A DNA stretch of 64,000 nucleotides from contig NC_068563.1 of assembly GCF_022201045.2 (NCBI RefSeq), positions 3,968,001-4,032,000 of the forward strand. Reading direction: 5' to 3'. The translations under genes were made by a program, and so were the position numbers. Below are positions 4,905 through 61,767 of the stretch, in pieces; positions within the stretch are counted from its first letter, which is position 1; the number at the start of each line of letters is the position of its first letter. This DNA is from Citrus sinensis (lineage: Eukaryota > Streptophyta > Magnoliopsida > Sapindales > Rutaceae). The notes beneath the pieces are model-generated. The model worked only from the letters and a program-made list of their open reading frames with translations, was not told the DNA's origin and searched no databases.

Positions 4905-6579
4905 TTAATTGGCGAGCTAAAGATCAAACTCTCCTTGGCTAGCTTCTGTCAACGATAAGTGAAGGTATTTTGAGCTCCGTACTTAACTATGATAGATCTT
5001 ATGATGTGTGGAAATATATTGAAAAACAATTTGGTGCTCAATCTGAGGCCAAGGTTATGCAGCTTCGATATAAAATGAGTGTACTTAGAAAAGAATCCAT
5101 GATTGTTGAAGAATATTGTTTGAAAGTTAAAATTCTTACTGATAAACTTACTTGTGTTGGTAGTCCTTTATCAGAAAGAAATTTGTTTATGCAAGTGTTA
5201 GACGGATTGGGACTAGTTACTTAGATCTTGCATCTATCATCACTGCTGATATAATGTCATATGATGATGCTTATGCTTTGCTCTTAACACATAAGGCTAG
5301 ATTGGAACATAATCAGATAGCTAAGTCTGTGTTTAATGCAAATTATGGAATGGTTAATTCAAACTATTCACTAGGAATGGATAGTGGCAGAAGAAGAGGT
5401 TATGGATGTAGTAGATATCATGGACATTTTAATGTTGGAAACATTAATCACTATGGTGGAAGAGGAATGTTCTTTCATGCATATGCCAGAGGATTTCCCA
5501 ATGATAATGTTAGTTATAACCTTGGTAGAGGATATTCACCACAAATGCCAATTCACAAGGCATCATCACACAACAAATCTGTCTTCAATATGTTTTATGA
5601 CTCATTTACTAATGAATCTAGTGACAATGATCTTATTTGCCAAATTTGCCATAAATCTAGTCACACTGCTGATGCATGTTGGCATAGGTATACTAAAAAT
5701 TATATACCTCCAATAAGGTCTTTTGGTAGAGCTAGAGGATTTAAGGTTGCTCATATGACCAGCTTTGAACCATTTACTAAATTTAGACCTTATATTGCTT
5801 ACTCTCATGCTATGAATTAATTTTCATATCAGACATCTGATATGAATCCATACTATACACTTGACACATTCTCTAGATTTGGAGTTGCTTATATTGCAAA
5901 TTTTGAAGGACCAGCTGATCAGGGGTGGTACCTTGATAGTGGAGCAACACATCACTTGACTAATAACATAGCTAATATGAACATTAGAGAAGAATTGAGA
6001 GGTTCTGATCAACTTATCATTGGAAATGGCCAAGGTTTGCCTATAACACACATTGGTGATGCATTCTTTACTTTTAAAAGTTCAAATACTAAACACCATC
6101 ACCCACAAATAGCACTTAAAGATATTCTACTTGTTCCTTCCATTACAAAGAACTTGCTGAGCATTTTTAAACTTACATCTGATAATCGCTTTTATGTTGA
6201 ATTTGTTGGTAACATATGCTATGTAAAGTATTCTCTAAAGAGGCAGGAACTTCAACAAGGTCTTGCTGAGAAAGGATTATACAGGTTGTTACTCAAATCT
6301 TCACCATCATCATCAACACCATCTTCTTTCTTATCTTACAGTATTCCTTCCTCTACTACATCTCCTACACCACTATTTATGCTGTCATGTTGTTATATCA
6401 ATTCTGCTTTTGATGGTGTTCAACTCAATAACTCAGACTTGAAGTCTTGTTTTCAATCTTCAGTTTCTTTATGTAAACCATCAATTAATAAAATTACTTT
6501 GCGATGTCTTCCTGCAAGCACCAAGAATCTTATCAATCTATTTTTGAACCTCCGAGGTTGTCCTAAATTAGAAAAGTAA
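4905..6579 (+). pseudogene. Ty1/copia gag-protease fragment
   Basis: Plus-strand remains of a copia polyprotein in several frames (about 4905-5223, 5254-5820, 5842-6579). The first part matches the copia gag core (DVWKYIEKQFGAQSEAKVMQ, then a long helix). The second is Gly/Arg-rich and ends in a CX2CX4HX4C zinc knuckle (CQICHKSSHTADAC). The third begins with the protease motif WYLDSGATHHLTN, in which the DSGA catalytic site is intact, and runs into the pre-integrase region. Stops at about 4942 and 5222, plus frame changes, break the reading frame. Integrase, RT and RNase H are missing. After about residue 160 of the last piece the protein no longer looks like copia, so the element is truncated there. 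Confidence 0.85.
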
Positions 6580-11167: not shown

Positions 11168-11240
11168 AACTGCCTCAATTACTCTCTTTTATGTCAAACT
11201 ATACATTAGACTTTAATACATTATTGTCTTAGCTATAGCC

Positions 11241-13082
11241 ATGGGAGAAGCTGATGAAGCTTTCGTTCAAGCCCTAGAACACAGGCCTAAACTCTCAATA
11301 ACTGAAGATGACGGCATACCCTTGATCGATCTCTCACCTTTGAGCTCTCCTAATGGCGCCAACACCAAACACATTGATGACCTTGTGGTGGAGATAGGTA
11401 ATGCATGCAAGACATGGGGTTTTTTCCAAGTGATCAACCATGGAGTGCCATTAGAAAAGAGGCAGAAAGTAGAAGATGCTATGAGAAAATTCTTCGCGCA
11501 GCCATTGGAGGAGAAAAGGAAGGTGAGGAAAGATGAGAAGAAGGCGGTGGGGTACTATGACAATGAGCATACCAAAAATGTTAGAGACTGGAAAGAAGTA
11601 TTTGATTTTGTTGCAGATAAGCGTATTTTGATGGCAGCTTCACATGAGCCTGAGGACAAGGAAGTTCCTGAGACGTTCAATCAATGGCCTGATTATCCTC
11701 CTGAATTAAGGTAAAGTTAACTCTTATATTGTGATAGTGAAGTTTGAGTACTTAACGATAATTTGATCATTGCAATATAGTGGACCTATTTGATTTGAAT
11801 AGATAATTATATCGTTTTCATTTGTTTCTTTATCATTATTTTTTGAAACAATATGTTTTTCATTTATATTTTTTCTTTGTAGTACAAGTTCTTAAAGGTT
11901 CAAGAGATCTCAAATCAAGAGATAAATATTCTAATCCTTTAGTACAAGCATCTAAAAGAATTTTTCCTTTTAGGCATCTAATTGACATTTTGATTACTAT
12001 CTTTGTGTTATCGAATTTAATAAGCTTGAGAGTAATTAGCAAATCTAAATTGGTGACGTGAATTTTCTCATGGTTGGAGAGAAGTCACAATATAGTCCAT
12101 AAGAGGTACTCATTGACAAGGTAAACAACCATAAGAAGCTGATTCGTACGTGTTAAATACCACTCAAATGGTTATAATTGGTTGTTGGTCAGTATGAGAA
12201 CTTGTAATCTTTTGGAGCCACCGTATATACTTTGATTAATGCAAAAGTTTAATTTTGCAAGAAAAGATTCAATGATAGGACTTTAGTTATGAGTTTTTCT
12301 TTGGTATGCTTTACAGAGAGTCATGTGAAGAATATGCTAGAGAAGTGGAAAAACTTGCTTACAAGTTGATGGAACTTATAGCCCTAAGCCTGGGACTCCC
12401 AGCAAGGAGGTTCAGTAGCTTCTTCGAAGATCCAACCAGATCTGTTAGACTTAATCACTATCCGCCATGCCCAGCTCCTCACCTAGCTCTAGGTGTCGGT
12501 CAACACAAGGACCCTGGTGCCCTTACCATCCTTGCTCAAGATGATGTCGGAGGTCTTGAGGTGAAGAGAAAATCAGATGGAGAGTGGGTTCGCATCAAAC
12601 CCACCCCGGGTGCTTATATCATAAATGTCGGTGACATTCTTCAGGTAATTCGTAATAGCCAGCTTAAGTTTTTTGTTCAAACGGTTAATAATTACTAATA
12701 TGGTGTCAAAAATCAAAATTTCGTGTTCGATACACTTTTTTTTTTTTTTAATGCCAATAGAATCTACGTAATTGTGCAGGTATGGAGCAATGATGTTTAT
12801 GAGAGTGTGGAGCATAGGGTTACGGTGAATTCTGAGAAGGAAAGATTTTCAATTCCATTTTTCTTCAGCCCACCACATTACACAATGGTGAGACCATTAG
12901 ATGAGCTTACAAATGAGCAAAATCCTGCTAAATACAGAGCATACAATTTGGGAAAATTTTTAGCCACTAGAAGGCAAAGTAATTTCAAAAAGCTTGATGT
13001 TGAGAACATTCAAATTTCTCATTTCAAGGTACAAGAGTTAGCTAACGAGTTGGATGGAGCACTCTCTATTAACAAGAAGTAA
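11241..13082 (+). CDS. 2-oxoglutarate/Fe(II)-dependent dioxygenase (At3g19000/At3g19010-like)
   Basis: Three exons: 11241-11710, 12317-12644 and 12780-13082, all with GT-AG introns, joining into 366 residues. It belongs to the soluble plant 2-ODD family, whose members hydroxylate or desaturate small molecules using 2-oxoglutarate and O2. The N-terminal DIOX_N domain covers about residues 24-150 (GFFQVINHGVP at 60-70). The catalytic jelly roll has NHYPPCP at 203-209, iron ligands H220, D222 and H278, and the 2-oxoglutarate-binding R288-x-S290. All catalytic residues are present and the length is usual for the family. The MGE.DEAF.QA.EHRP N-terminus resembles my recollection of the Arabidopsis At3g19000/At3g19010/DIN11 clade. 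The substrate cannot be told from sequence. A close tandem copy lies at 17213. Confidence 0.93.
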
Positions 13083-17157: not shown

Positions 17158-17212
17158 TAAGAACCACTTTTACCTCATCAGTAGTGAATCAATCACCTGC
17201 AGCTAGCCAGCC

Positions 17213-18920
17213 ATGGGAGAAGTTGATGAAGCTTTCGTTCAAGCCCTTGAGCACAGGCCTAAACTCTCCGTAACCGAAGCCGAGGGCATACCCTTAATTG
17301 ATCTCTCAGCTTTGAGCGCCGCCAACACCAATATTAAAAACCCTGACAGTACCATTCGTGACCTGGTTGTGGATATAGGCAATGCATGCAAGAACTGGGG
17401 GTTCTTTCAGGTGATCAACCACGGCGTGCCATCGGATAAGCGCCGGAGCCTAGAAAATATGGCGAGGAAGTTTTTCGAGCAGCCGTTGGAGGAGAAGAGG
17501 AAGGTGAGGAGAGATGAGAAGAAGGTGGTGGGGTATTATGACACCGAGCATACCAAAAATGTTAGAGATTGGAAAGAAGTGTTTGATTTTGTCGTGAAGA
17601 GCCCTTGTTTGATGCCAGCTTCATCTGATCCTGAGGACAAGGAAATAGCTGAGACGTACAATCAGTGGCCTGATTATCCTCCTGAATTCAGGTAAAGTTC
17701 ATTTCTTAATTATATTGTGTTGGTGAAATTAATTTTAATACTTAAGTATTATGACTTGGAGAGAATTCTAAATTTAAAAGAGAATTCTGATCCTTTAATA
17801 TGCAAGTCAATCGAACAAGAGTTTGTACTTTTTTTAAAACACCTAATGGGCATTTTAATTAGTGTCTTTGTGCTATCGAATTTAATAAGCTTCAGAGTTA
17901 AGAAAATCCAAATTGGTGACCTGAATTTTCTCATGGTGGAGGATAGTCACAATATATAGTCCATAAGAGGTATTTGTCGGCAAAATAAACTACCATAAGC
18001 AGTTGAGTAGTGTTGAGTACCACTCAAATAATTTTAATTGGTTGTTGGTCAATTTGAAAGCTCGTATAATAATATTTTGGAGCCAAGCATGCTCTGATTA
18101 ATTGCAAAAGTTAATGTAGCAATTATAGTATTCATTTATTTATTTACTTTTGGCATGTGCTTGACAGAGAGGTATGTGAAGAGTATGCTAAAGAAGTGGA
18201 AAAACTTGCATACAAGTTGATGGAACTTATAGCCCTGAGCCTGGGACTCCCACCAGACAGCTTCAATGGCTTCTTCAAAGATCAAACCACCTTTGTTAGA
18301 CTTAATCACTACCCACCGTGCCCAGCTCCCCACCTCGCCCTCGGCGTCGGCAGACACAAGGACGCCGGCGCCCTTACCGTCCTTGCTCAAGATGATGTCG
18401 GAGGTCTTGAGGTGAAGAGAAAATCAGACGGGGAGTGGGTTCGCGTCAAACCCACCCCGGATGCTTATATCATAAATGTTGGTGACATTATTCAGGTAAT
18501 GACTAGCTTAAGCTTTTTGATCAAACAGTTAATAATTATTAATATGTTTGTCAAAATTGAATTTTCGTGTTCATCATATACACTTTTGTTCTCAATAATG
18601 TCTATGTAATTCTCCAGGTATGGAGCAATGATGCTTATGAGAGTGTGGAGCATAGGGTTATGGTGAATTCTGAGAAGGAAAGGTTTTCAATTCCATTTTT
18701 CTTCTTCCCATCTCATTACACAATGGTGAAGCCATTGGATGAGCTTACAAACGAGCAGAATCCTGCTAAATACAGAGCATACAGTTGGGGGAAATTTTTA
18801 ACTACTCGAAAAGGCAGTAATTTCAAGAAACTTGATGTTGAGAACGTTCAAATTTATCACTTCAGGGTACAAGAGTTAGCCGATAAGCTGGAAAGAGCAC
18901 TCTCTATAAACAGCAAGTAA
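17213..18920 (+). CDS. 2-oxoglutarate/Fe(II)-dependent dioxygenase, tandem copy
   Basis: Three exons: 17213-17691, 18168-18495 and 18618-18920, with the same intron phases (2 and 0) as the gene at 11241, giving 369 residues. The protein is very similar to its neighbour. The main length difference is three extra residues in the variable loop around residues 35-45. Iron ligands are H223, D225 and H281, and the 2-oxoglutarate pair is R291 and S293, so it should be active. The second iron-site segment reads GRHKDAGALTVL versus GQHKDPGALTIL in copy 1, a substitution next to the active site that could shift substrate preference. It is soluble and probably cytosolic; the substrate is unknown. Both genes point toward the VRN1 gene at 21291. 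Confidence 0.93.
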
Positions 18921-21290: not shown

Positions 21291-23951
21291 ATGCCACGAC
21301 CTTATTTTCACAAGCTTATTCTCGCCTCCACCATTCGTGACAAGAGACTGGTAAATTCAACATCACTTTTGACTTTTATTGATTAATTCTTGTTAGATTA
21401 ATAAGTTAATTGTAAAGGGTGGTTGAATTTTTGCTTATTATGTCTTTTCATTTTCTGATTATGCTTGTTTTGTGTGATTTTGAGACAAAAATAGAAACTT
21501 TAGACCCGGATGTGAAAAATATTGTAGTTAAATAAAATCTGGTTGCTAGGTATTGTATTGAGCAATAGTTTGTTTATGAAGTTTCGAAGGATCCTTCAAT
21601 TTTTTTTTATTTTTTTTTTGGGTGGGGGTGGGGAAGCAGAAAGGAGAAATTTGAAGCATTTTTCTTTGGATGTTGTGTTCTTAGAATTCTTATATAAGAA
21701 TAAACTAGTTAAGCTTAGCATCCGAGTTGTGAAAGCCTTTATTCAATGATGCACCCAGATACCTGTGAGATTCTAAAAAAAACCCAGAACTTTGTTCAGT
21801 TATTAAAGAAACTGTAAGAATGGAGGAAATGAAAATAGATATTTTAGGTGTTTACTTTATAGAAATAAAGGTAATCAAACTTCACTTACCTGTACAATAA
21901 TATGAGGAAGCTCAATTGGGGTGGGGAAGGGGAGATTTTGCTGATCCTATAATTTTCTTGGAAGCAACATATCTCTGGTCATACTTGAAATTTCTTGAAA
22001 CTAGTTGAAGGTAGATTATAAACCTGTGCTTCATCTTAGAGAATCCATTGATAGATAAATCAACTTTAAATCTTTATGGATAAATTGATGGACCCTTCTC
22101 TGTTGTTTTTGTGGTCTCTTGGCTACGAAACATGGTTAATGGTGAGAGGTTCTGTTTCTCACTGCTCTGAGCAATGAGAGGGTACTGTGTTAGTTGCAGA
22201 GCAATTATGTCTTTGATTTTACATTTGGCTTTAACATCCTACAATAGCCTCTTGGGGTGCCATTCAGTTATAATATTAAAAGCTTTGTAATATTTTCCCT
22301 TTCCATTGGGTAAATTGAAAATAATTTCAAGTTACTTGAGATATAAACTTTTCCTGGATTAGTGGCGGTATTCATCTTATCCTTACTCTTGAGGTAGGTT
22401 TCTTTGTAAAACTAGAAAGAGCAAGCATAGATTTTGCTGCAGTGAATCTCTTTGCTGTGTTTATCCTTTCGATCTGGTCAAAGTTCTGCATGGCAAATTA
22501 TGTCCTGAAAATAGTTCATGAATAACTTTTGGGAATAGGATGGGCAGATATGTCATGAAAAATAATTCATTGATATGGCATATCAACATTTTTATCAGAA
22601 AGAGTAGCAGCTTCATCTACAATCCTAATTTTATTCTCCTCAAGACTGCACTCTAACCTGATTTGGGTGCCTGCAGAGGATTCCAGAAAACTTTGTTAGG
22701 AATTTCAAGGATGACCTTTCTGCAGCTGCTACACTTATTGTTCCGAATGGTATGGTTTCACGTGTGGGATTAAGGAGACTTGACAACAAAGTATGGTTTT
22801 ATGATGGGTGGCAGGAATTTATGGAACGTTACTTTATCCGTGTTGGGTATTTTTTGGTCTTCAGATATGAAGGGAATTCAGCCTTTAATGTTTATATTTT
22901 TAATTTGCCTTCTTCTGAGATAAACTATCAACCTAATGCCCTCAGTAATTTTGAAGTACCCAATCATAGCAAACAATACCATATATTTGCAGAAATGGAA
23001 GATGATGACTCTGAACATGTAGATCAACCAACAGTCAACAAGACTTTCAATCCTCCGTCATTTCAGAATTTGCTTAACAGCTCTAAACTTAGCAACAGCA
23101 TAAATGGTGCTGGTGAAGCAAACTTGCAGCGATTAAAAGGTCTGATAAATTCTCTGGTCGGAAATTATTATACTCTAGATATAGATGTTCAGTTCAATAT
23201 TTATGAGTCTAAGGATTTGTTAAATGCAGTGAAATTGTATTCACAAGATGGAGAAACACCAAAGCTTAAAAAACCTGGGAGAAAGCGAAAGATTGATCCT
23301 AGTAAGATTTTTGGGCTCGCATTCTTGTTTAATCCTGTCATGTCTGAAGAATTCAAATTTCTAATCAAACAGTTCTATAAAAATGCAGATGTTCAAGCGT
23401 CGTCCGCACAAGAAGTACATGATGGAGAAATGCAGTTTAGATTTTATGAAAGTGCTTCAGCAAGAAAAAGGACTGTGACAGCTGAGGAAAGGGAAAGGGC
23501 AATTAATGCTGCCAAAGCATTTGAACCATCTAATCCTTTCTGCAGGGTAGTCCTGCGGCCATCTTACTTGTATAAGGGATGTATAATGGTGAGCTGTAGA
23601 ATTTCAATTACTCTACACTGTTTTTCTGTCTCACACGATAATATGCTTGATGTAAGATGCATCTACTTTTTGCTTTTGCAGTATTTGCCATCCTGCTTTG
23701 CCGAAAAACATCTAAATGGGGTTTGTGGATTCATCAAACTACAGCTTTCTGATGGTAAGCAGTGGCCTGTCCGATGTCTATACAGAGGAGGCAGAGCTAA
23801 GTTCAGTCAAGGCTGGTATGAATTTACCGTGGAGAATAGATTGGGGGAAGGAGATGTTTGTGTCTTTGAGGTACTAAGGGCAAGGGAGTTTGTTCTGAAA
23901 GTTACCGTATTTCGTGTCTCGGAAAGTGCAGGATTTATGAGTCGACATTAG
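21291..23951 (+). CDS. VRN1: VRN1-type REM/B3 DNA-binding protein
   Basis: Model: exons 21291-21350, 22677-23301, 23389-23588 and 23682-23951, giving 384 residues. In Arabidopsis, VRN1 is a nuclear, largely sequence-nonspecific DNA-binding protein that keeps FLC repressed after vernalisation. The N-terminal B3 domain spans about residues 5-100 ([10 protein letters not shown]... to [12 protein letters not shown]). A basic KKPGRKRK patch follows near 217, then the highly conserved [20 protein letters not shown] segment, and a C-terminal B3 domain at about 275-378 ending [20 protein letters not shown]. The conserved segment and second B3 are nearly identical to the Arabidopsis protein as I recall it. 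Introns 2 and 3 are 87 and 93 bases and contain no stop, so retention would give longer proteins (413, 415 or 444). I accept both introns because their phases (1 and 0) match every paralogue in the array. Confidence 0.93.
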
Positions 23952-25128: not shown

Positions 25129-27128
25129 ATGTCTGAGCAGCAAACAACTCATGGTGAAGCAATGTCGCAGCCATTGGCGCCATATTTACCAGAGGAGGAG
25201 AATCAGAAGAGGTCTTGCATTTTCTACAAGCTAATTGTGCCCTCCATTCTCCAAGACAAGAAGCTGGTACCTGTTTACTTTCACTTTCTTCTTTGTTACT
25301 TTCCCTTTGACATTCTGTTTGTTTGCCCAGAAATTTGATAAACAAGTTGCAAACAGTGTAACGGCTTGTTTGGTTGTTGGGAAAATTTAAAAAAAAAAAG
25401 AAAAGAAAGAAACACCCCCAGAGTTTTACTGCCTCTATTCTCACCCTCAACATTGCATTGAACTTGTATTATTTGTTGATTATAAATTTTCTTCGTACTA
25501 TTTTACTTGTTACTTCGAAATTAAAGGGAAAAAAAATAAAATTGCAACCTCCAATGATCTGGGGAATTTGAGAAGTCTAAAATGTGCATGCAAGTAATAT
25601 TTTACTGTGTGTGTGTTTGTGTTGTTTTTTTCCTTTTTTTCCCTTTTTTCCCTTTAGTCTCTGAATTAAGATGCTTGTATGATCGTGGGTAATCTCATGT
25701 TGCTGGATGCTACCTTTTGTATAAAACATATACTTAGTTATGTATTTAGACAAAAAGTTATATATGTAAATATGTAATGCTTAATATTATTCTGTCACAG
25801 CTCTTAGTATTATGACAAATCTGAGTTAATTTTTTCACTGCAGAGGATCCCAGATAAGTTTGTTAAGAAATTTGGAGATGAACTTTCTACAGTAGCGAAA
25901 CTCACTATTCCCAGTGGTCGTTTATGGCTTGTAGAACTAAGAAAACTCAACAAGAAGTTGTGGTTTGATATTGGTTGGCATGAGTTCGTAGAACATTGCT
26001 CCATTCGTGCTGGGTACTTTATGATCTTCAGATATCAAGGAAATTCAGATTTCAATGTCTACATATATGATTTAGCAAAATCCGAGATAGAGTATCCATT
26101 CAACACTTGTAGTAGCTTGGAAGAAGAACCCAGTGGTAACAAGCAATGCTCTGTACCCATTGACAAAGATAAGGGAGAAGATAACTCTTTTGGAATATCC
26201 AAGCCTTCAAGCTCTCCATGCCCAGTCCTTTCTCCTTCAACAATCAATGTCGAAGATGAAGGTGCATACTACAAAAAGAACAAGAACTCTACCTCTGGGG
26301 TTAAATTAAAGTATCTGCATCTAGCAGAGGAGGTGCATAATCAGGAAGCAACATTTCAATCTCCTCAAGATAAAGGAATAATACAGTTCAAAAGCAATGT
26401 TACGAACAAATCAGATGAAGTTGGATTGTATTTCAGTGGTGGAACAAAAAGAAAAATCTCGGGGCCAGGACAAATAACTGACTCTTGTAGGGTCTATGTT
26501 AGATGAAGTTAGATGCTGTTTTTATTGATTGTTTCCTGTTGGCTTTTATTATGACTAATTTTGAATGTGCGTTCATGAACCATTAGGCAAGCACAAATTG
26601 GAACCAGTAGAGTTGCCTAAAGGAAGAACTTCTTGCAAAACTTATACGAGGAGGGGGCGAGCTCTGACATCTGAAGAAAAGAAGAGTGCATTGCGTGCAG
26701 CAGAAATATTCAAGTCCAATAATCCTTTCTTCAAGGTTGTCTTGCGCCCATCATACGTATACAAGTCATTACTCCTGGTAAGCCTATGAACCACGCCTTA
26801 AATATGAATATTCCAATCCCGTTTATACAGTTCTTTTTTGCTTGTGCAGCATATTCCAAGCATCTTTGCAAGAACATATCTGAATGGTATTAAGGGAGAC
26901 GTGACACTTACAGGTCCCAATGGCAAACAGTGGCGTGTTCGATGCATTTCTCAGAATGGTAAAGCTAAGTTCGGCCAGGGCTGGTCTGAATTTGTGTGGG
27001 ACAATAACTTGGATGAAAGTGATGTTTGTGTATTTGAGCTGGTTAAGACAGATGATGTTACACTGAAAGTTACCATATTTCGAGTTCTTCAAGATGCAAG
27101 ATCAGAGGAATGCCAACCTTCGAAGTAA
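25129..27128 (+). CDS. REM-type protein with two B3 domains (VRN1 paralogue A)
   Basis: Exons 25129-25266, 25844-26486, 26587-26777 and 26850-27128, intron phases 0, 1, 0, giving 416 residues. Predicted nuclear DNA-binding protein. The first B3 domain runs from about residue 32 ([14 protein letters not shown], then [14 protein letters not shown]) to about 130 ([14 protein letters not shown]). A poorly conserved, Ser-rich linker follows, then the [20 protein letters not shown] segment homologous to VRN1's [15 protein letters not shown]. The second B3 domain covers about 305-408 ([12 protein letters not shown] to LKVTIFRV). The exon 2 donor is TT|GTAGGG, chosen because it restores phase 1 and matches the paralogue at 29777. 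The start is the first ATG of a long N-terminal extension; a second ATG 12 codons on is possible. Function beyond B3 DNA binding is unknown. Confidence 0.88.
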
Positions 27129-29776: not shown

Positions 29777-32087
29777 ATGTCTGAACAGCAAACAACCGTT
29801 GATGAAGCAATGTCACGGCCATTGGCGCCATATTTGCCAGAGGAAGGGAAGAGGTCTTGCATTTTCTACAAGCTAATTGTGCCCTCCATTCTCCAAGACA
29901 AGAAGCTGGTAACTGTTAAATTTATTTCACTTTCTTCTATTTTACTTTCCCTTTGACTTTCTGTCTGTTTGGTGTGAAAATTGAGGAAGAAGTTATAAAA
30001 TGAGTTAACGGCTTGTCCGGTTTGTTGGTTTGGCTGGTGGGAAATTTGATTGTCTCAAATTTTTTGGTGATACTTTTCTTGTTATCTTTAATGATCTGGG
30101 AAAATTGAGAAGATTAAAATGTCCGCTTGCTTTTACCAGAATTGTCGGTAGTGCCTGTTCATCATAGTCCCAGAAAAGTTTTTTAAGACCATGACTTGGT
30201 TAATTGAAAGAACGGTGGTTCCTGCTATTTTCATTTTCAGAGACTGAGCTATGCTTAGGGTCTCTTTGGGATTGAGGTGCTGTGGCTTTGAAGTCACAGC
30301 TGCACTAGTGAGACGGGGGCAGTAACTACTAAATTTCAAGTATAAGTGGAATTGTGGGAAAGCAAGGGTAAAGATTAGCTCTCAAGTAAAAGTCGCTGTT
30401 TATCAAACATTTAATTACTGTGGTCATCATTAGAAGTCAATGGTCTCTTAATATGCTATACACACTTGATGCTCTTCATTGAGTGTTAATTTTTGTCTTC
30501 TTTTAATTTCATATCAAGTATTTTTGCATTTATCATCTGGGGAAAAAAAGAAAAGAAAATAACTCTTTTATTTCTGTTGACTATCCATTGTTATGCTAGC
30601 CATTTAAGGATATATTTTACTTTTGGTTACATGCTGCTCTTCATCAAATGTTATCTTTTCATTTCAATTGCCTTTTCAATTATGAAGTTATGTCGTCTTT
30701 GTTAATCTCATGTTGCTGCTACTTCATTGAAGCTGAGTAATGTTCATGATGAATCATTTGTGCAATGCTCAATATATATTTTGTTGTGGACATTTCATTG
30801 GTGGTACTGTTGCAGAATCTGATAATTTTTTGCACCTGCAGAGGATCCCAGACAAGTTTGTTCAGAAATTTGGAGATGAACTTTCTTCAATTGCGAAATT
30901 CACAATTCCCGGTGGTCGTATGTGGTTTGTGGAACTAAAAAAATGCAACAAGCAGTTGTGGTTTGATATTGGTTGGCATGAATTCATAGAGCATTGCTCC
31001 ATTCATTCTGGGTACTTTTTGATCTTCAAATACCAAGGGAATTCAAATTTCAATGTCTACATATTTGATTTAGCAATTTCTGAGATAGAGTATCCAAGCT
31101 TGGAAGAACCCAGTGATAGCAAGCAATGCCATGTACCCATTGAGAAAGATAAAGAAAAAAATAGCTCTCTCAGAATATTGCCATCTTTGTGTGCTTCATG
31201 CCCGGATCCTTTTTCTCCAGCAACCATGGTCTTAGATGAAGGTGTATGCTACAAGTGCAATAAGGACTCTACATCTGGAGTTAAAATAGAGTACCTGCAT
31301 ATACCAAAGGATGAACATAATCAGGAAACAGCATTTCATTGTCCTCAAGATAAAGGAATACAGTTCAAAAATACATCAGATGAAGTTGGACTGTATTTCA
31401 ATTGTGGCACAAAAAGAAAAATCTCTGGGCCAGGACAAATAACCAATTATTGTATGCTTTATGCATTTAGAAGCAATTTTGTGTATTACTATTGGCTAAT
31501 CTCATCACTAATTTTGAATGTGTATATGAACCATTAGGCAAAATCGAACAGGGAGCAGAGTTTCCTTCCTATAGAGTTTCTTTCAAAACTTATACGAGGA
31601 GGTGGAGAGCTGTAACGACTGAAGAAAAGAAGAGAACCGTCCATGCAGCTGAAATGTACAAGTCGAGTAATCCTTTATTCAGGGTTATCTTGCGACCATC
31701 CTATGTATATAGGACATTGCTTTTGGTAAGTCCTTTGAACTATGCCGCAAATAAAATTTCTTGAATCCATTATTATAGAACTGGGCAATTTGTTTATTTA
31801 TTTATTTATTTTTGTTTTTGCAGCATGTTCCTACCAGCTTTGCCCGAAAGTATCTAAATGGCATCAAGGGATACATCACAATTATAGATTCTAATGGGAA
31901 GCAGTGGCCTGTTCGATGTATTTTTAAGAATGGTGGAGCTAAATTCAGCAAGGGCTGGCCTGAATTTGTGTGGGAGAATAACTTAGACGAAAGCGATGTT
32001 TGTGTGTTCGAGCTGATTAAGTCAAATGATGTCACATTGAAAGCTACCATATTTCGAGTTCTTGAAGATGCAAGACCTGTGTATTAA
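29777..32087 (+). CDS. REM-type protein with two B3 domains (VRN1 paralogue B)
   Basis: Exons 29777-29908, 30842-31451, 31538-31725 and 31824-32087, phases 0, 1, 0, giving 397 residues. It is the closest relative of the gene at 25129: MSEQQTT start, [15 protein letters not shown] extension, [15 protein letters not shown], then RIPDKFVQKFGDEL. The two also share the SGPGQIT sequence just before the exon 2 donor (TAT T|GTATGC). The first B3 domain is at about 30-128. The linker contains several Cys residues. The second B3 domain spans the last two exons and ends LKATIFRV. It is predicted to bind DNA in the nucleus. The promoter-proximal 80 bases also match the sister gene, so the whole unit was duplicated and later split by transposons (27.99-29.53 kb). 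Confidence 0.88.
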
Positions 32088-49550: not shown

Positions 49551-52238
49551 TCAAAGAGATTTGAAACAGGGAGAAAAAGCATTTTGAGTGGCTTCGTCCT
49601 CCCATTGAAGCCTTCTCCACCAGTATTCTTCTCCACGAATGACAATTTTACGCTCCTTTGCACTATTGAAATCGAGTGGAAGCTTCTTAAGAAAATAGCA
49701 ATCGTCTACGAGCATTTCTTTCAGTTGTGAGAAAGGCAAGGGCTTCCAATAGATACTGTTCAAATTTCGCAAGCAGACCAATTCAAGATGTTGGAGTTTT
49801 GCAAAAGGGTTCAGATTATTTCTCACCGTCTCTGGAAAGTCAGCAAATTTTTGGACACTAATGATTTCTTCCATAGCCAAGCAGCTTCTAATCTCAATAG
49901 ACTTGACATTTGGAGCAAAAACAAGAAACGTCAAGTCCTTCAATTTAGAGCATAAACTTATCTGAACTTTCTGAAGGCTGTTGAAAACACAAGATTGCCT
50001 TAAATCAACCGTCAATTCTTCCAATTCTTCACAGTCTCTAATACGCAATCTATTGAGATGCTTCAGCTCTGCTAACTGAGAAGCATCAATCCACTTTGAA
50101 TTTTTGAGACCATCAAGGAACAGAGCTTGAGAACATCTTCGTAATTCATTTGAGGTTAAAAATATTTGGAGAACACGAGAACTTGTCAAGGTGAACTCCA
50201 GAACCTCCAAATTTTTCAAACCAAGCAATTCCTCCACCAACAATTCATCCCTGGCAAATAAAACCCCATCTCCTGACACCTCACTATTTTTGAAATAAAG
50301 AGAAGAAAACATCCTCAAGACATGTAGCATTGAAAACTTAGATATTAATTGCCGTGGAATTACAGACAGGTACATTGTATGATTCAGATTCAAACATTTA
50401 AGATTTACTAAAATCTCTAACTCTCCAGGCAACTCTTTTATTCTTGTATGTGAAAGATCTAGATGTTGCAGTGAAACCAACTTTGAAATTCTTGAAGGAA
50501 GTTCGGTTAGTTGAATATGTGACAGTTTTAAAACTTTGAGAGAAGGCATATAATGGAAGAAGCGACTGGAGATCACCTCTAACTTATTATTGTTAAGAAA
50601 CAGCGTAACGAGATGGGGGCATCTGGGATAAATGTTGGATAGATCCTCAATATGATTTTCCATCAGTGACAATCTTCTTATCTTTACCCATCCACTAATA
50701 GTTGAAGCCTTACATAAGCCAGCACCAGCATAAACGAGAAAGTTCTCCTTCTCCTTCTCAACTTCACATGCTATCCACAGAGTCATATCACGAATAACGT
50801 CATGCATTTTCACTTTATCATCTTCTACCTCTTCTAGTAAACATGCATGAACAAGAATGCCAATTGTGAAGTATCCTTGGTTTTGCTTTTGCGCTTCAAA
50901 TCTATCATTTTCATCCAAAAACCCTTCACCAATCCAACAGTCAATCAAGTCGCTTTTTGAAATGTGATAATCTTCTGGATATAAACTACAGTATAAGAGA
51001 CAAGATCTGATTGTGTCACTAAACAAACTATCGTAACTGAATTTCAACAGAGGATACACCTCTTTACCCAAACCTGCAAATTCGGAAGCTGCTCTTCTCA
51101 ACACTTGAATTGCATATCTCCATTCTTCAGGCGTCGTCTTGTAAGCCATAGCCCGACCAATGGTAATAAGTGCAAGCGGCAAACCACCACACTCCTTGGC
51201 CACCATTTGTGCTAGCTCAGGAATATCATGGTGATAGTTAAGAGTTTCTTCTCCGACCTTCTCTCGGAACAATTGCCAAGCATCCTCATCCGATAAGCAC
51301 TCCACTTTGAACTTCTTATGAGCTTCCATGAGGCCACAAACATCAAGAAGACGAGTCGTGAATACTACTTTGGATGCAACATTTCTTGAGTTGGGAACAG
51401 GGACACCCACTTTAGTTAAATCAACTCTCTCCCATAAATCATCTAACAACAATACAAATTTCTTCTTGCTTAAAACTTTGAAGATATCGAGAGCTTTCTC
51501 CTCGCGACTTCTATTCTTCCATAAGCCATCAAACAGGCCTATCTTCTTCCCGATCGTTTCCTGAATCTTTTCAAGCTGCAAGTCTTTGGAGACTACAACC
51601 CAGATCACAAAATCAAAACCGTAAGGCCTGTTTAGAAATTTATTGTTCAGCAGGGTTAACAGTGTAGTTTTACCGACACCGCCCATGCCATAGAGGCCAA
51701 TAATTCCCGCCGTCTCTTGTACCAGACAACTCCAAACTTGTTCAAGAATGGATTGCAAGCCCACTACTAACGGCTCAGTAGGTCTTTCATCGGCTACAAT
51801 AGATTCTTCAACGATTTCAACGACCACTTCATCAAAAGCTCTTTCACCCATTAATGTCCTCACAACCAGTAGAGTTTCAGCTACTTGTTTCCCAAACCTG
51901 TAGCTTGACTTGTAGTTTCTGGAACAGTAGCCTCCGAGACATAATTTGTCAATTTCTTGAGGGCTATCTCTTGTGAGTTGACCAACTTCAGTCTCCGCAG
52001 CTTGCACCCTTGAAAGCCAGCCTTGCACTTGATCCGTACGTTTCATTCTTCGCTGTTCAGCAACCTCAACTCTTCTCATCACATCATTCCTTGCTTCAAT
52101 TAACTTTTCCAGTTCACTCTGCAGAGCTCTAAGATTGTCCTTAAGCTGCCTCACATATGCTGCTTTGTGGACAGTACAATTAAGGCAAAGAGTGAAAATG
52201 GCATCACATGAGATCTGGATTCCGATGATGTTACCCAT
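49551..52238 (-). CDS. CC-NB-LRR (RPS5-like) disease resistance protein
   Basis: Single-exon intracellular immune receptor of 895 residues, a usual length for RPS5-type CNLs. It detects pathogen effectors and triggers cell death through its nucleotide-dependent switch. N-terminus MGN with Gly2 and nearby cysteines (C11, C18, C21) suggests myristoylation/acylation and membrane attachment, as known for RPS5. The coiled coil is about 25-85 with VQGWLSRVQ at 71-79. NB-ARC motifs are all present: P-loop GMGGVGKT 184-191, kinase 2 LLLDDLW 263-269, RNBS-B FTTR 293-296, GLPLA 352-356, RNBS-D region CLLYCSLYPEDY 413-424 and MHD 478-480. Leucine-rich repeats occupy about 510-880. No stops or missing switch residues, so it looks functional. 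It stands alone here; the nearest immune gene is the receptor kinase at 57840, on the same strand. Confidence 0.95.
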   Translation of the reverse strand: MGNIIGIQISCDAIFTLCLNCTVHKAAYVRQLKDNLRALQSELEKLIEARNDVMRRVEVAEQRRMKRTDQVQGWLSRVQAAETEVGQLTRDSPQEIDKLCLGGYCSRNYKSSYRFGKQVAETLLVVRTLMGERAFDEVVVEIVEESIVADERPTEPLVVGLQSILEQVWSCLVQETAGIIGLYGMGGVGKTTLLTLLNNKFLNRPYGFDFVIWVVVSKDLQLEKIQETIGKKIGLFDGLWKNRSREEKALDIFKVLSKKKFVLLLDDLWERVDLTKVGVPVPNSRNVASKVVFTTRLLDVCGLMEAHKKFKVECLSDEDAWQLFREKVGEETLNYHHDIPELAQMVAKECGGLPLALITIGRAMAYKTTPEEWRYAIQVLRRAASEFAGLGKEVYPLLKFSYDSLFSDTIRSCLLYCSLYPEDYHISKSDLIDCWIGEGFLDENDRFEAQKQNQGYFTIGILVHACLLEEVEDDKVKMHDVIRDMTLWIACEVEKEKENFLVYAGAGLCKASTISGWVKIRRLSLMENHIEDLSNIYPRCPHLVTLFLNNNKLEVISSRFFHYMPSLKVLKLSHIQLTELPSRISKLVSLQHLDLSHTRIKELPGELEILVNLKCLNLNHTMYLSVIPRQLISKFSMLHVLRMFSSLYFKNSEVSGDGVLFARDELLVEELLGLKNLEVLEFTLTSSRVLQIFLTSNELRRCSQALFLDGLKNSKWIDASQLAELKHLNRLRIRDCEELEELTVDLRQSCVFNSLQKVQISLCSKLKDLTFLVFAPNVKSIEIRSCLAMEEIISVQKFADFPETVRNNLNPFAKLQHLELVCLRNLNSIYWKPLPFSQLKEMLVDDCYFLKKLPLDFNSAKERKIVIRGEEYWWRRLQWEDEATQNAFSPCFKSL

Positions 52239-52852
52239 ATTCTGTGTTAAGGTTCCAACAAAAAGAAAGGAACTTGGAAAAATTGAAAACCACAGAAAAT
52301 AATTCTTGTAGTGTAATAAAAAATTTGTTAAGGAAGAGAGGGTGTTTTAGTTTTTGTACTTTAATGACCCTGGACTTAAAAAATTATTACGTTGGACAAT
52401 TGAGGATTAATTTGAGTTTATTTAACCTTTCTCATTTAAGTCGTACTTGCCTTAACTGGCTACTGAAATAATTTTAAAGATTAAGGGGCTGTTTGTTTTT
52501 ATTTTTTAATTTAATTTAATTAATTATAGGTAATTAAGTTATCAAGTTTATTTTTTTATTTAATAACATTTTTCAGTAATTAGGTCAATAAGTTATTAAA
52601 TTAATTTTTTTTTAATTTTTTACTTACTTTAAAAAATTTGAATGATATCATTAAAAAATAGTCTATAGAGTGTCCTTATCTAATTCATTAATTTATATTT
52701 TTACCCAAATAAAATTTAATAATTAGCATTATTACTTATTTGTATAACTTGTGGTAATATAGTGATAAACCATTATTATTTTTATCTTTATATTCTCTTC
52801 AAATTAGCATTATTTATCTATATATTTTTTTATGAATATTTTTCATTTGAAC
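52239..52852. other. NLR upstream region
   Basis: AT-rich 5' flank of the NLR gene (minus strand), ending at the hAT-like element. No other gene is seen. Confidence 0.5.
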
Positions 52853-57839: not shown

Positions 57840-60800
57840 TTACGCCCATGGAGACAAAGGTCCAGATAAAATCCCATCGCTTACGAGGGGCATGCTTGTT
57901 GTTTGTTTGCCTTCCAGACAAGCAGGAGTCTCAAGAAGTTTCCTTCTAATAAATCGTAGTCTTGACTCAACATCATTCATTTTCATCCTTTCTCTAGGAC
58001 GTTCAGCCGAACAAGCAACTCCAATTTCACGTATAGAGTTGAAGCATTCCAGAATTATGCTAGCATGAGCACTTCTGCCTGATGAAGATGATGCCTCCAT
58101 GCACATTGTTCTGTCCTCTTCAATTTCCTGAAGATTAAAATCATCCACAACCTCTTCTGCTTGTTGAGGCAAAGCCATTTTAACGAAGTTCCGAAGGTTC
58201 ATCTTTCCTGTGAATATATGGGTGTCAATTCGGCCAGCTGGTAAAATATCTTGAGTGAGAGAGGGGGGCGGGGGGAAGGAAAAAAAGGTCTGAGTTTGAA
58301 TACACCTCACATGAATGAGAGAAAATTAGATTGCCATTATGCTATAACAACAACAATACAATAACAACAACTTGCCTGTGAAAATGCCATCACTGGGTCT
58401 GATCCCTGTGAACATTTCTAATAAAAGGATTCCAAAACTATACACATCACCATACGTTGAAGCCTCACATCCCAGATCATACTCTGCATTAAACATGTCA
58501 AATGCTGTTAGCAACACTGTAAAGGACTTAATGACTCATTTGAATGCGCTTTTGCAAATATGAGAAATTAATTTTCTTATGAAACTGTAATTGATAAATA
58601 AAAATTAGAGTACCCGGAGGAATATAGCCAGTGGATCCTTTGATGCAGATGAAGCGGTTTTGTTTATCAATGGCTGGAAGAAATCTTGCCATGCCAAAGT
58701 CACCAACATGTCCAATCATTTCATCATCAAGAAGAACATTGCTGGGTTTGAGGTTACAGTGAGCTATTGGAGGTTGACAATCACAGTGCAAATACCTAAG
58801 TGCGCATGCTACATCAATGGCTATGTCTAGTTTCTTTTTAATAAGAAAATTAAAATTCAACGGCCTCCAGTTTGTATCATCTTTACCACGCAACCACTCT
58901 TCTAGGCTTCCATTAGGCATGAACTTATAAACAACGGCCTTAAATCTTGCACCTTGATAATCAACTCCAGAAAATGCAGTGAAAACCCTGACAATATTCC
59001 GATGTTTGATGTTTATCGCTGCCTTGCACTCAGATTTGAAACTCTTGGAACCACCAGGACGAATAAGGTTAAACACCTTCACCGCAATTGTTGTACCATC
59101 AAAGAGAGTTCCATTATAAACAGAGCCAAAGTTGCCTGCACCAATCAGATTTGCCGAGGAGAAACCATTAGTCGCATTGTAGAGATCTTTGAATGATGGG
59201 TTATTGATAGTTTGTTTCCCTTCATAAACAGGAGTCTTAAGAAGTTTCTTTTTTATCAAACGTAATCTTGACTCGACATCATTGATCTTCACCCGTTCAT
59301 TTGGCAGTTCAGCAGAACAAGCAACTCCAGTTCTACATATTGAGATCAAGCATTCCAAAATTATGCTACTCTGAGTACAAGTTGAAGATGCCTTTTTGTA
59401 CATTGTTTCCTCTTCTTCAATTTCTTGAAAGAAAACAACATCCAAAATCTCTTCTGCTCTTTCAGGCAAAGCTGATGTAACAAAATTATGAAGGTTCAAA
59501 TCATCGTTGAACATGTCATCATTGGGTCTCAGTCCTGTGAACATTTCTAGTAAAAGGATGCCGAAACTATACACATCACCGTATGATGAAACAAATCCCA
59601 TTCCATACTCTGCATTAAAGCATTAAAAATGTTAAATACTGTTACCACAAGTTAAAGGACTCGATGACTCATATAAATGCTTTTTTTTTTTTTAAAGAAA
59701 TTACATTACAATTTAGATATACTTAGAAGCAGAAATATTTTTTAACCTCGTAAATCAACTCCATGAAAGTGTCATTTCGATATCTGGGCCCAGAACCAGC
59801 CAGATATAGTCCACGTATTCTATAAAATCAATCTCCGAATGCACATGGGAGGACTCAAGAATAAACTTAGGAGGTCACTGCTACCGTGCATTTTCTTAAA
59901 CGGGAGAAAATATTGAGAAATTTCATTTGCTTATCAGACTGTAATTCATAAGTATAAAAAGTGGAATACCTGGAGCAACATAACCAATGGTTCCCATGAC
60001 ATCAATGAAGCTTGTCTCTACTGGAAGATATCTTGCTATGCCAAAGTCACCCAAATGTGCCGTCATTTCATCATCAAGAAGAACGTTGCTGGGTTTGAGG
60101 TCACAATGAGCTATCGAAGGTATGCAATCATTGTGCAAATAGTTGAGTGCACTGGCTATATCGATGGCTATGTTTAGTCTCTTAAGTGAATTTAAATTCC
60201 TTGGCGCCCTGTGTCTTTCATCTCCCTCATTAATTGGATGCAACCACTCCTCTAGTCTTCCATTAGGAATGAACCCATAAACAAGGGCATTGAAGTCCTT
60301 GCCTTGATAATCAGCTCCAGAAAATGCAGCGACAATCTTGAGTATATTTCGATGTCTTATTTTCCTCATGATCTCGCATTCAGCTACGAAACTCTCGGAA
60401 CCACCAGAATAAGCAAGGTTAAACACCTTCACTGCAGTTGTTCTACCATCAATGAGAATTCCTATATAAACAGAACTGAAATTGCCTGTAGCAATCAGAT
60501 TTGTCGAGGAGAAACCATTCGTAGCTTTGTAGATTTCTTGGTATGTCAATTTTAGGAAATTTGTTGAATTAGGATCCTCTCTTGGTATAGAATTCCCTCT
60601 TAGAGTAGGATTCTCTCTTTTATTCTTCCATACCAAACAGTATAACAGAGAATATAGTATCCAAGTAAGTAATAGAAGCCCAATGTCAATAGCAATCACC
60701 AATTTCAAAGAAAGGGTCCATCTGTTCCTTTTAGTTTTCTTAGGAACACATGTTGGCAGCTGAAATTCAGGTATGCCACTGCAAAGCTTATTGTTCCCCA

Positions 60801-61767
60801 AAACCGAAGTGGCACTCGTATTCTTAAAGATTCCTTTTGTTGGTAACATGCCCTCAAAGTTATTGTAAGATAGATTTAGGTTTTGTAACAATTCAAATCC
60901 AGCCAAAAATTCAGGAACATCACCTGAAAGATTGTTTTGAGACAAATCCAAAACTCTAAGACCACTCAGAGAACTCAAAGATGAACTAATAGGACCTTCG
61001 AATAAGTTTCCATGCATATCTAATTGTTCCAAACTAGTACAACCACCAAGATTATTAGAAATAACACCTGATAAAAGGTTCCCAGAAACATTTAATAATG
61101 ATAACGATGAGAGACCAATGAGTTGTGGGGATAAGGTGCCACTAAAATTGTTATTAGAAAGATCAACAGCTACCAACTTTTCGCATTGGCCAAAGCTTGA
61201 TGGGATGGTGCCCTGAAGAAAATTGCCACTCAAATCTAGTTGGATTAACATTTTCAAATTTCCAATAGATATTGGAATATTTGCTGAAAATTTATTTTTT
61301 TGTAAGTTCAAAATTCTTAAATTTTGTAGATCTCCTATGGCAGAGGGAATGGTACCTGATAATTGATTATTCCACAATTCCAGCCTCTGCAAGTTGACTA
61401 ACTTCCCAATCTCAGTAGGGATGTTTCCAACTATTTTATTATTTTGGAGATGTAATTTTTGAAGAAAGCTCAAATTTCCCATGTGAGGTGATATAGAGCC
61501 TCCGAGTTGAAGGGACTGCAAGTCCAAAACTGTGACTCTCTGGTGTCTTGGGGCACAAGTAACGCCATGCCACTTGCAATAATTGATGGAGCTATTCCAT
61601 GAGGCTAGAACTCCAAGATGGTCATCAATGATCACGGACTTGAATTCAAGCAAGGTTACTTCATCTGTCTCATTCCCTGCAACAACTATAGAAGCCCTCA
61701 CACCTAGAAAACAGAACACAGGGATAGCAGTTACAGCAAAAAATGACCAATACACTTTCATGCCCAT
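57840..61767 (-). CDS. LRR receptor kinase with two tandem kinase domains (LRR-XII type)
   Basis: Exons (minus): 61767-59970, 59609-58614, 58483-58376, 58207-57840. All three introns are phase 1, the last with a GCAAGT donor. Joined: 1089 residues. Signal peptide about 1-29, LRRNT 35-75 ([15 protein letters not shown]), ten LRRs about 78-325, transmembrane segment about 352-376. Kinase 1, about 418-700: glycine loop ATGNFSSV (eroded), K447, HCDLKPSN with D556, DFG 574-576. A 40-50 residue tail follows ([16 protein letters not shown]), then without a break kinase 2, about 738-1035: intact GAGNFGSV (756-763), K777, HCNLKPSN with Asn885 replacing the catalytic Asp, DFG 903-905. Both lack the RD arginine, as in EFR/FLS2/Xa21 relatives, which sense microbial patterns at the plasma membrane. 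Exon 2 encodes both the end of kinase 1 and most of kinase 2, so this is not two separate genes. Ten LRRs is about half the family norm. Confidence 0.82.

What the first reader, a model, noticed from the sequence alone, without database searches (positions are those of the whole stretch)
57840..61767. Receptor-like kinase with two tandem cytoplasmic kinase domains on one polypeptide
Four exons join in frame, with all introns in phase 1, into one 1089-residue LRR receptor with two complete kinase domains. The decisive piece is the uninterrupted 996-base exon 59609-58614, which contains the APE-side half of kinase 1, its C-terminal tail, and then kinase 2 through its DFG motif, with no start, stop or second ectodomain between. 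Established: cytoplasmic tandem-kinase proteins are resistance proteins in cereals (for example Rpg1, Yr15), and kinase-pseudokinase pairing is common there. Inference: two head-to-tail LRR-XII receptors fused after deletion of the second ectodomain, joining the tail of one (GKQTINNPS) to the juxtamembrane region of the next ([11 protein letters not shown]). A transmembrane LRR version would be a distinct architecture.
Basis: partly seen in the sequence, partly recalled or inferred. Interest (0 to 1): 0.88.

Follow-up and report, generated by a model that had tools for sequence, protein, structure and literature searches.

The report
Citrus receptor with kinase–pseudokinase tandem tail
A citrus gene whose fused layout also appears in a nearby copy and in database proteins from two other citrus reads without a break as a predicted cell-surface receptor with two kinase domains in a row, one of which has lost its catalytic residue and would likely regulate or shield the other.

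Summary
Four exons (61767-57840, minus strand) join in phase 1 into 1089 codons without a stop: signal peptide, LRRs, one TM, kinase 1, short linker, kinase 2. It is not an assembly collapse: a second copy 32 kb away (88% identical) and database proteins from clementine and lime carry the same junction. The two sweet-orange copies diverged with dN/dS 0.43 (K2 0.38), so the fused protein was constrained, though copy B now has a stop in K2.

The kinases differ. K2 reads HCN where the family reads HCD; K1 keeps HCD but lost two P-loop glycines. Among the database models examined, LRR-TM-kinase-kinase proteins fall into 11 lineages; in 4 (citrus, Malvaceae, poppy, carrot) one kinase has Asp-to-Asn while another keeps Asp, against 0 of 252 control kinases. 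It is also the laboratory change (EFR D849N) that leaves EFR able to signal.

Likely reading: an LRR-XII receptor with a kinase–pseudokinase tail made by fusion of neighbouring genes. Expression and function are untested. Tandem kinases, and LRR-RLKs with two kinase domains, were known; this is a receptor-type variant.

The parts
59970..61767 (-). exon 1: signal peptide, LRR ectodomain, TM, juxtamembrane, K1 up to the APE Glu codon
   Evidence: gene model; Pfam LRRNT_2, LRR_8, kinase
60742..61671 (-). LRR ectodomain (aa 33-342), 9 LRRs by my regex; median 16 in 140 single-kinase relatives, 21 of which have 9 or fewer
60658..60714 (-). single transmembrane helix (aa 352-370; helix 353-383 in the model of P0001)
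   Evidence: hydropathy; model
60472..60492 (-). K1 glycine-rich loop, degenerate ATGNFSS (first and third Gly lost)
   Evidence: first Gly kept in 137 of 137 single-kinase controls with a residue there (4 more have a gap)
59610..59969 (-). intron 1 (GT-AG, phase 1) at the APE Glu of K1
58614..59609 (-). exon 2: rest of K1, K1 tail, junction, K2 through DFG to the APE Glu codon
   Evidence: open frame 59622-58528
59203..59289 (-). 29-residue linker between K1 and K2 (aa 707-735)
59191..59210 (-). fusion junction: K1-type tail on one side, juxtamembrane-type sequence of a second kinase on the other
   Evidence: same in copy B, P0018, P0121
58753..58755 (-). AAC (Asn) at the catalytic-Asp position of K2 (HCN instead of HCD)
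58484..58613 (-). intron 2 (GT-AG, phase 1) at the APE Glu of K2, same position as intron 1 in K1
58376..58483 (-). exon 3 (36 codons): K2 from the APE Glu onward; skipped in database model P0001
58208..58375 (-). intron 3, GC-AG, 168 nt, phase 1; its ends lie in a direct repeat TTCACAGG(C/A)AAG; absent from K1, gene C and the relic in L005
57840..58207 (-). exon 4: end of K2, C-terminal tail, stop codon

Best explanation
The window holds one open LRR-TM-kinase-kinase gene, likely made when neighbouring LRR-XII receptor genes fused, and its protein is predicted to be a cell-surface receptor in which K1 keeps the catalytic Asp and K2, which reads HCN there, would act without catalysis to regulate or shield K1. 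Shown here: the open frame, the same junction in a second copy and in database proteins of two other citrus, the residues, dN/dS below 1 between the two fused copies, and the recurrence of Asp-to-Asn in tandem LRR-XII receptors. Inferred: an unequal exchange or deletion joined the C-terminal tail of an upstream gene to the juxtamembrane of a downstream one, removing its ectodomain and TM. The ectodomain would sense a ligand with a SERK/BAK1-type co-receptor, as EFR does. K2 keeps the P-loop, Lys, alpha-C Glu, Asn171 and DFG, so it is predicted to bind ATP but not to transfer phosphate, and would act as an allosteric partner of K1 or the co-receptor, or as bait for kinase-targeting effectors.
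For: Gene model intact with phase-1 introns. Same junction in copy B, P0018 and P0121. Copies A and B: dN/dS 0.43 (bootstrap 0.33-0.58) over 1082 codons; ectodomain 0.35 (0.20-0.57), K1 0.51 (0.26-1.13), K2 0.38 (0.23-0.63), K2 before B's stop 0.40 (0.20-0.84). Asn at the catalytic Asp in K2 of A and B and in P0018 and P0121 (sequences). Of 141 single-kinase models 139 have Asp, one Ala (P0199) and one Asn, which is P0121, this same K2; of 112 kinases scored in LRR-K-LRR-K models 110 have Asp, one Tyr, one Ser. In 4 of 11 tandem lineages one kinase has Asn while another keeps Asp; Fisher p 1.6e-5 against 0 of 140, not corrected for kinship. The four lie in separate clades. EFR, an LRR-XIIa receptor, still signals as D849N and activates BAK1 allosterically (PMC11259431 abstract and passages). 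HER3 and JAK JH2s carry the same Asp-to-Asn and bind ATP (PMC4718504 passages). In Pm36 the two kinase domains together, without the TM, are active in vitro while either alone is not (PMC11006675 passages).
Against: No transcript, protein or phenotype was available. Copy B has a TGA in the K2 activation loop (codon 925), DFS for DFG and a 36-nt duplication, so one of the two copies in this genome is losing K2. K1's dN/dS interval reaches 1.13, and the C-terminal tail is at 0.80 (0.38-2.22). K2 lacks the activation-loop Ser pair (R-F; Ser at the first site in 129 of 140 controls), which EFR needs, and K1's loop is shortened (PMC11259431 passages). In that paper kinase-dead XPS1, XIIa6 and FLS2 gave reduced bursts and catalytic-site mutants of all tested non-Arabidopsis XIIa kinases were dead, so signalling without catalysis may not hold in citrus. 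Full-length Pm36 was inactive in vitro. 7 of 11 tandem lineages keep Asp in all kinases. Asp-to-Asn is a single transition, so mutation bias favours it. K1-K2 sisterhood in citrus is unresolved (90/37), and K2 matches copy B's K1 as well as gene C (79%), so fusion against internal duplication is not settled.
Confidence: 0.55

Rival explanations
1. The fused gene is a by-product of a fast-recombining receptor cluster and is on its way out: K2 is a passenger with no function, and at most the LRR-TM-K1 part works.
For: Copy B has a stop in K2; a third K2-type tail at L005:6370-6795 is a fragment with no further kinase match next to it in my tblastn; K2 lost the catalytic Asp and K1 two P-loop glycines; dN/dS intervals of K1 and the tail include 1.
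Against: dN/dS of K2 between copies is 0.38 (0.23-0.63), no weaker than the ectodomain's; copy A is open throughout with usable splice sites; K2's loss is one residue with the ATP-binding residues kept, and the same residue changed in three other lineages.
Confidence: 0.3
2. K2 is an integrated decoy: it resembles a kinase that pathogen effectors attack, and its modification triggers the receptor or an NLR partner, as proposed for cereal tandem kinases.
For: Kinase-pseudokinase layout as in Yr15/WTK1 (PMC6170490 passages); an NB-ARC-LRR gene lies 5.5 kb from this gene's 3' end (49551-52346); Asp-to-Asn recurs in tandem receptors.
Against: No effector, NLR dependence or cell-death data; a neighbouring NLR may be coincidence; of the validated tandem kinases only Pm36 has a membrane motif and none in the passages I read has an LRR ectodomain.
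Confidence: 0.2
3. The locus makes more than one product: a normal LRR-TM-K1 receptor by early polyadenylation, intron retention or skipping, and a soluble K2 from internal initiation, so the joint protein is minor.
For: Annotations disagree: P0001 skips exon 3, P0121 starts at exon 2 and reads part of intron 3, P0018 starts inside K1; intron 3 has a GC donor, and retaining it gives a stop at codon 984, inside K2.
Against: The models look like software choices around a GC donor; I have no evidence for a separate promoter (none could be tested), and the K1-K2 join lies inside one exon.
Confidence: 0.15
4. Assembly or annotation artefact: two receptors collapsed with the second ectodomain missing from the assembly.
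For: Tandem arrays of similar receptors are prone to collapse (general knowledge).
Against: Two diverged copies in one assembly share the junction; clementine and lime database proteins span it; it lies inside an exon, so no annotation choice makes it.
Confidence: 0.02

Closest known systems
LRR-XII receptor kinases (EFR, FLS2, XA21, At3g47570-like)
   Same: LRRNT, LRR ectodomain, one TM, non-RD HCD kinase K1; database names of the relatives are mostly At3g47570/At3g47110-like; gene C has an intron at the same kinase position
   Different: A second kinase domain follows the first; K2 is HCN. The ectodomain is short, but neighbouring single-kinase relatives P0016 and P0043 are short too
Plant tandem kinase proteins (Rpg1, Yr15/WTK1, Pm36/WTK7-TM)
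   Same: Two kinase domains on one chain, one predicted inactive; polyphyletic origin by fusion or duplication (PMC6170490 passages)
   Different: Classical members lack ectodomain and TM; Pm36 has a TM, at the C terminus, and no LRRs in its described domains (PMC11006675 passages)
LRR-RLKs or RLKs with two kinase domains in family surveys (2 of 329 in Medicago, PMC7555646; some wheat RLKs, PMC11968617)
   Same: Two kinase domains in an RLK gene (passages)
   Different: In the passages I saw they are only listed: no residue, junction or selection analysis; one wheat case appears to be two whole RLKs in tandem
JAK JH2 and HER3
   Same: Asn for the catalytic Asp in a domain that still binds ATP (PMC4718504 passages); JAK pairs pseudokinase and kinase on one chain
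   Different: Animal families; in JAK the pseudokinase comes first (recalled); no homology of the arrangement is implied

Membership tests
LRR-XII receptor kinase | LRRNT plus LRR ectodomain and one TM before the kinase | tested here: met
LRR-XII receptor kinase | non-RD catalytic loop HCD | tested here: inconclusive
   K1 HCD met; K2 HCN not met
LRR-XII receptor kinase | closest relatives are At3g47570-type LRR receptors | tested here: met
   kinase tree
LRR-XII receptor kinase | one phase-1 intron at the APE Glu of the kinase (as in neighbouring gene C; family-wide rule recalled) | tested here: met
   introns 1 and 2 both there
Tandem kinase protein (as described in PMC6170490) | two kinase-like domains on one polypeptide | tested here: met
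Tandem kinase protein (as described in PMC6170490) | one domain a predicted pseudokinase | tested here: met
   K2 lacks the catalytic Asp; activity itself untested
Tandem kinase protein (as described in PMC6170490) | no extracellular or transmembrane domain | tested here: not met
   signal peptide, LRRs and TM present; so it resembles a TKP but is not filed as a classical one
Tandem kinase protein (as described in PMC6170490) | confers pathogen resistance | not testable with these tools
   needs plants
EFR-type allosteric receptor kinase | VIa Tyr present | tested here: met
   Tyr in both K1 and K2; 140 of 140 controls
EFR-type allosteric receptor kinase | activation-loop Ser pair needed for signalling | tested here: not met
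   K2 R-F; K1 S-F in a shortened loop, alignment uncertain

The most novel reading that the evidence does not exclude
Plants have repeatedly built receptors with a cis kinase–pseudokinase tail: a second LRR-XII kinase is fused behind the first, and then one turns from HCD to HCN while its partner keeps HCD, the same change as laboratory EFR D849N. The two jobs of an LRR-XII kinase, catalysis and non-catalytic activation or effector bait, are thereby split between domains of one receptor. The citrus gene is one of at least four such origins.
Probability: 0.3. Interest if true: 0.85.

Novelty: new variant of a known kind. Interest (0 to 1): 0.6.

Why it matters
Whether LRR-XII receptors signal by phosphorylating or by propping up their co-receptor is an open question that so far rests on laboratory kinase-dead mutants. 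A natural receptor that carries one Asp and one Asn kinase on the same chain, with the same change in four lineages, would let the two roles be tested by swapping or removing single domains. It also links cell-surface receptors with the tandem kinase-pseudokinase resistance proteins of cereals.

Tried and rejected
Assembly collapse was rejected because a diverged copy B and database proteins from clementine and lime share the junction. Recent internal kinase duplication was not favoured but stays open: A's K1 and K2 are nearer to gene C than to each other in DNA, yet K2 matches copy B's K1 as well as gene C (79%), and the tree is unresolved (90/37). A freestanding K2 parent was sought in the genome; the best matches outside the tandem K2s were gene C and copy B's K1 (best 40 candidates scored). 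The dead-gene reading is kept as a rival. The promoter and terminator scan at the junction is for bacterial signals and says nothing here. PDB sequence hits only confirm LRR-RLK homology. The structure model is of P0001, which lacks exon 3, so its K2 C-lobe was not interpreted and no fold search was run. Many 1500-1900 aa hits have a second LRR ectodomain between the kinases and served only as controls. Reveguk et al. 2025 (tandem kinase atlas, PMC12282663) is not held; from memory it reports that many tandem kinase proteins have a TM, so this gene may already be listed there. Literature searches for receptors or RLKs with tandem kinases: (one search was for the XLG fusion, for pseudokinase chemistry); they cover only open-licence PMC papers.

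Rows dropped before counts: the 246 proteins (244 from the best 120 rows of each of three searches with 6942, 7766 and 7305 hits, plus copies A and B) split into 141 single-kinase, 56 LRR-K-LRR-K, 21 tandem that pass my filter and 28 other multi-kinase models. The 28 were left out of lineages and controls; their scored kinases have 54 Asp, 2 Asn (P0018, lime copy B; P0134, Papaver; both of lineages already counted) and 1 Glu (P0138, Persea). P0121 was removed from the single-kinase controls (141 to 140) because it is this gene's K2 in clementine. An earlier ectodomain comparison (114 controls, median 17 LRRs) had kept only long proteins with late kinases; the unfiltered figure is used instead.
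Full report
What is there. The minus strand at 61767-57840 encodes a 1089-residue protein in four exons (61767-59970, 59609-58614, 58483-58376, 58207-57840) with introns of 360, 130 and 168 nt, all phase 1, and no internal stop. The order is signal peptide, LRRNT and LRRs, one TM (aa 352-370), K1 (aa 406-706), a 29-residue linker, and K2 (aa 736-1042). Intron 3 has a GC donor (AG|GCAAGT), which probably explains why database models differ here: P0001 skips exon 3 and is otherwise identical, P0121 reads part of the intron. Retaining intron 3 gives a stop at codon 984.

Where it is. The window is C8:3968001-4032000 of a 300-Mb genome in 11 contigs. P0001, named Citrus sinensis, lies on a contig of the same length as C8 (30,582,302), so the window is most likely sweet orange and P0001 its own annotation.

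Not an artefact. I fetched 60 kb beyond the window. On the same strand there and in the window lie gene A (the finding), gene C (L006, one kinase) and copy B (L007:6030-9945), which has the full LRR-TM-K1-K2 layout, the same junction and the same GC-AG intron. Copy B is 88% identical to A. P0121 from C. clementina (94.7% to A) and P0018 from C. x aurantiifolia (97.3% to B) also span the junction. A fragment at L005:6370-6795 is a third K2-type tail, 87% identical in DNA to A's exon 4, and has no intron 3.

How it arose. The junction (59210-59191) changes from a K1-type tail, matching gene C's tail through AAACAAACTAT, to a juxtamembrane-type sequence within about 20 nt. In DNA, A's K1 is 81% and A's K2 79% identical to gene C, and K1 and K2 of A are 77% identical to each other; but K2 and copy B's K1 are also 79% identical. 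This leans to joining of two family members over a recent internal duplication; the protein tree does not settle it (90/37). Loss of the downstream gene's ectodomain and TM is inferred.

Selection since the fusion. Because A and B share the junction, most of their differences should have arisen after it. dN/dS is 0.43 overall (bootstrap 0.33-0.58), 0.35 (0.20-0.57) in the ectodomain, 0.51 (0.26-1.13) in K1, 0.38 (0.23-0.63) in K2 and 0.80 (0.38-2.22) in the C-terminal tail. K2 was thus under constraint for much of that time. Against this, copy B now has a TGA in the K2 activation loop, DFS for DFG and a 36-nt duplication, so K2 is being lost there. Unequal dS between domains (0.08 in K1, 0.17 in K2) hints at gene conversion.

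The two kinases differ. K2 keeps the P-loop, Lys, alpha-C Glu, Lys168, Asn171 and DFG but has Asn for the catalytic Asp. K1 keeps the catalytic residues but has A and S for two P-loop glycines. Activation-loop serines present in most relatives (129 of 140 at the first site, 122 of 140 at the second) are missing in K2 and doubtful in K1.

A recurring change. Of 246 proteins examined, 21 (19 from the database, one of them P0001, plus copies A and B) have adjacent near-full kinases with no LRR or TM between. I group them by species and tree into 11 lineages. In four, one kinase has Asn for the catalytic Asp while another keeps Asp: citrus K2, Malvaceae K2 (Pterospermum, Diplodiscus; family checked; the three-kinase P0214 has Asn in both K2 and K3), Papaver K2 and Daucus K1, the last also NFG for DFG. 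Seven lineages keep Asp throughout. Controls: of 140 single-kinase models, after removing P0121 which is this same K2, 139 have Asp and one Ala; of 112 kinases scored in LRR-K-LRR-K models 110 have Asp, one Tyr, one Ser. So 0 of 252 have Asn. 28 further multi-kinase models that failed my filter are in neither group: 54 Asp, 1 Glu and 2 Asn, the latter in lime P0018 and Papaver P0134. Fisher p is 1.6e-5 against the 140, with no correction for kinship. The tree needs 12 changes of the tandem label, at least 9 forced by well-supported branches. K1 and K2 are well-supported sisters in 9 of 11 lineages; citrus and Gossypium P0040 are the exceptions. No single-kinase relatives of the clade with the Malvaceae, P0149 and P0235 were included, so tandem origins there may be fewer. 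The four Asn lineages have the most diverged pairs, P0235 coming close (my reading of branch lengths); the four youngest pairs (Silene, Artemisia, Ranunculus, Spatholobus) keep Asp. Some of these database models may be annotation merges; I did not see their DNA.

How it may work. EFR, an LRR-XIIa receptor, signals when its catalytic Asp is changed to Asn (D849N) and activates BAK1 allosterically; kinase-dead FEXL1 and XIIa5 behave much alike, kinase-dead XPS1, XIIa6 and FLS2 less well, and catalytic-site mutants of all tested non-Arabidopsis XIIa kinases fail (PMC11259431 abstract and passages). HER3 and JAK JH2s carry the same change and bind ATP (PMC4718504 passages). In Pm36 neither kinase alone nor the full-length protein was active in vitro, but both kinases without the TM were (PMC11006675 passages). 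My reading is that K1 is the catalytic output and K2 a nucleotide-binding, non-catalytic partner acting on K1 or the co-receptor, or as bait. The missing activation-loop serines in K2 speak against a plain EFR-type toggle. No step of the function is tested.

Place among known kinds. It is an LRR-XII receptor with a tandem-kinase tail. By PMC6170490 (passages) tandem kinase proteins lack ectodomain and TM, so it is not filed there, but it shares their kinase-pseudokinase layout. LRR-RLKs with two kinase domains have been counted before (PMC7555646, PMC11968617; passages). What I did not find in the listings and passages seen is the recurring Asp-to-Asn change in receptor-type tandem kinases. 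The tandem-kinase atlas of Reveguk et al. 2025 was not held.

Noticed in passing
L006:1691-3990 (C8 about 4,045,990-4,043,690, minus) and on to about L006:548: Neighbouring gene C is an LRR-TM-kinase whose last kinase exon runs on in frame (523 aa open) into sequence that database models name extra-large G protein; P0043, P0016 and P0017 carry the fusion, and P0043 hits Pfam G-alpha. A receptor kinase fused to a G-alpha-like protein would deserve its own study.
   Followed up: partly
58208-58375: Intron 3 looks like a young intron made by insertion: its ends lie in a direct repeat (TTCACAGG.AAG) that supplies both the GC donor and the AG acceptor, it is absent from K1, gene C and the K2-type relic in L005, and about 80 nt of it match a sequence on C2 with no kinase match in the 3 kb around it.
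   Followed up: partly
L007:6030-9945: Second LRR-TM-K-K gene (copy B) with a stop in K2, DFS for DFG and a 36-nt tandem duplication in exon 3; lime P0018 shares the duplicated residues.
   Followed up: yes
P0149 (C. sinensis, contig of 29,493,366 bases): A separate LRR-TM-kinase-kinase protein of a different subclade in sweet orange, both kinases with Asp.
   Followed up: no
P0012 (Silene latifolia): LRR-TM with three closely similar kinases in a row, all with Asp.
   Followed up: no
49551-52346: Single open frame of 931 aa with NB-ARC, winged helix and LRRs (NLR-type gene), minus strand.
   Followed up: no
22662-23951, 25808-26506 (similar ORFs at 30737, 33415, 44717): A run of B3-domain ORFs on the plus strand; Pfam B3 confirmed for the first two, the others judged by eye.
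   Followed up: no
11217-11714, 17207-17695: Two similar 2-oxoglutarate dioxygenase-like genes in tandem; Pfam DIOX_N confirmed for the first only.
   Followed up: no
2-1396 and 5821-6579: Retrotransposon pieces: reverse transcriptase/RNase H on minus and a Pol_BBD piece on plus.
   Followed up: no
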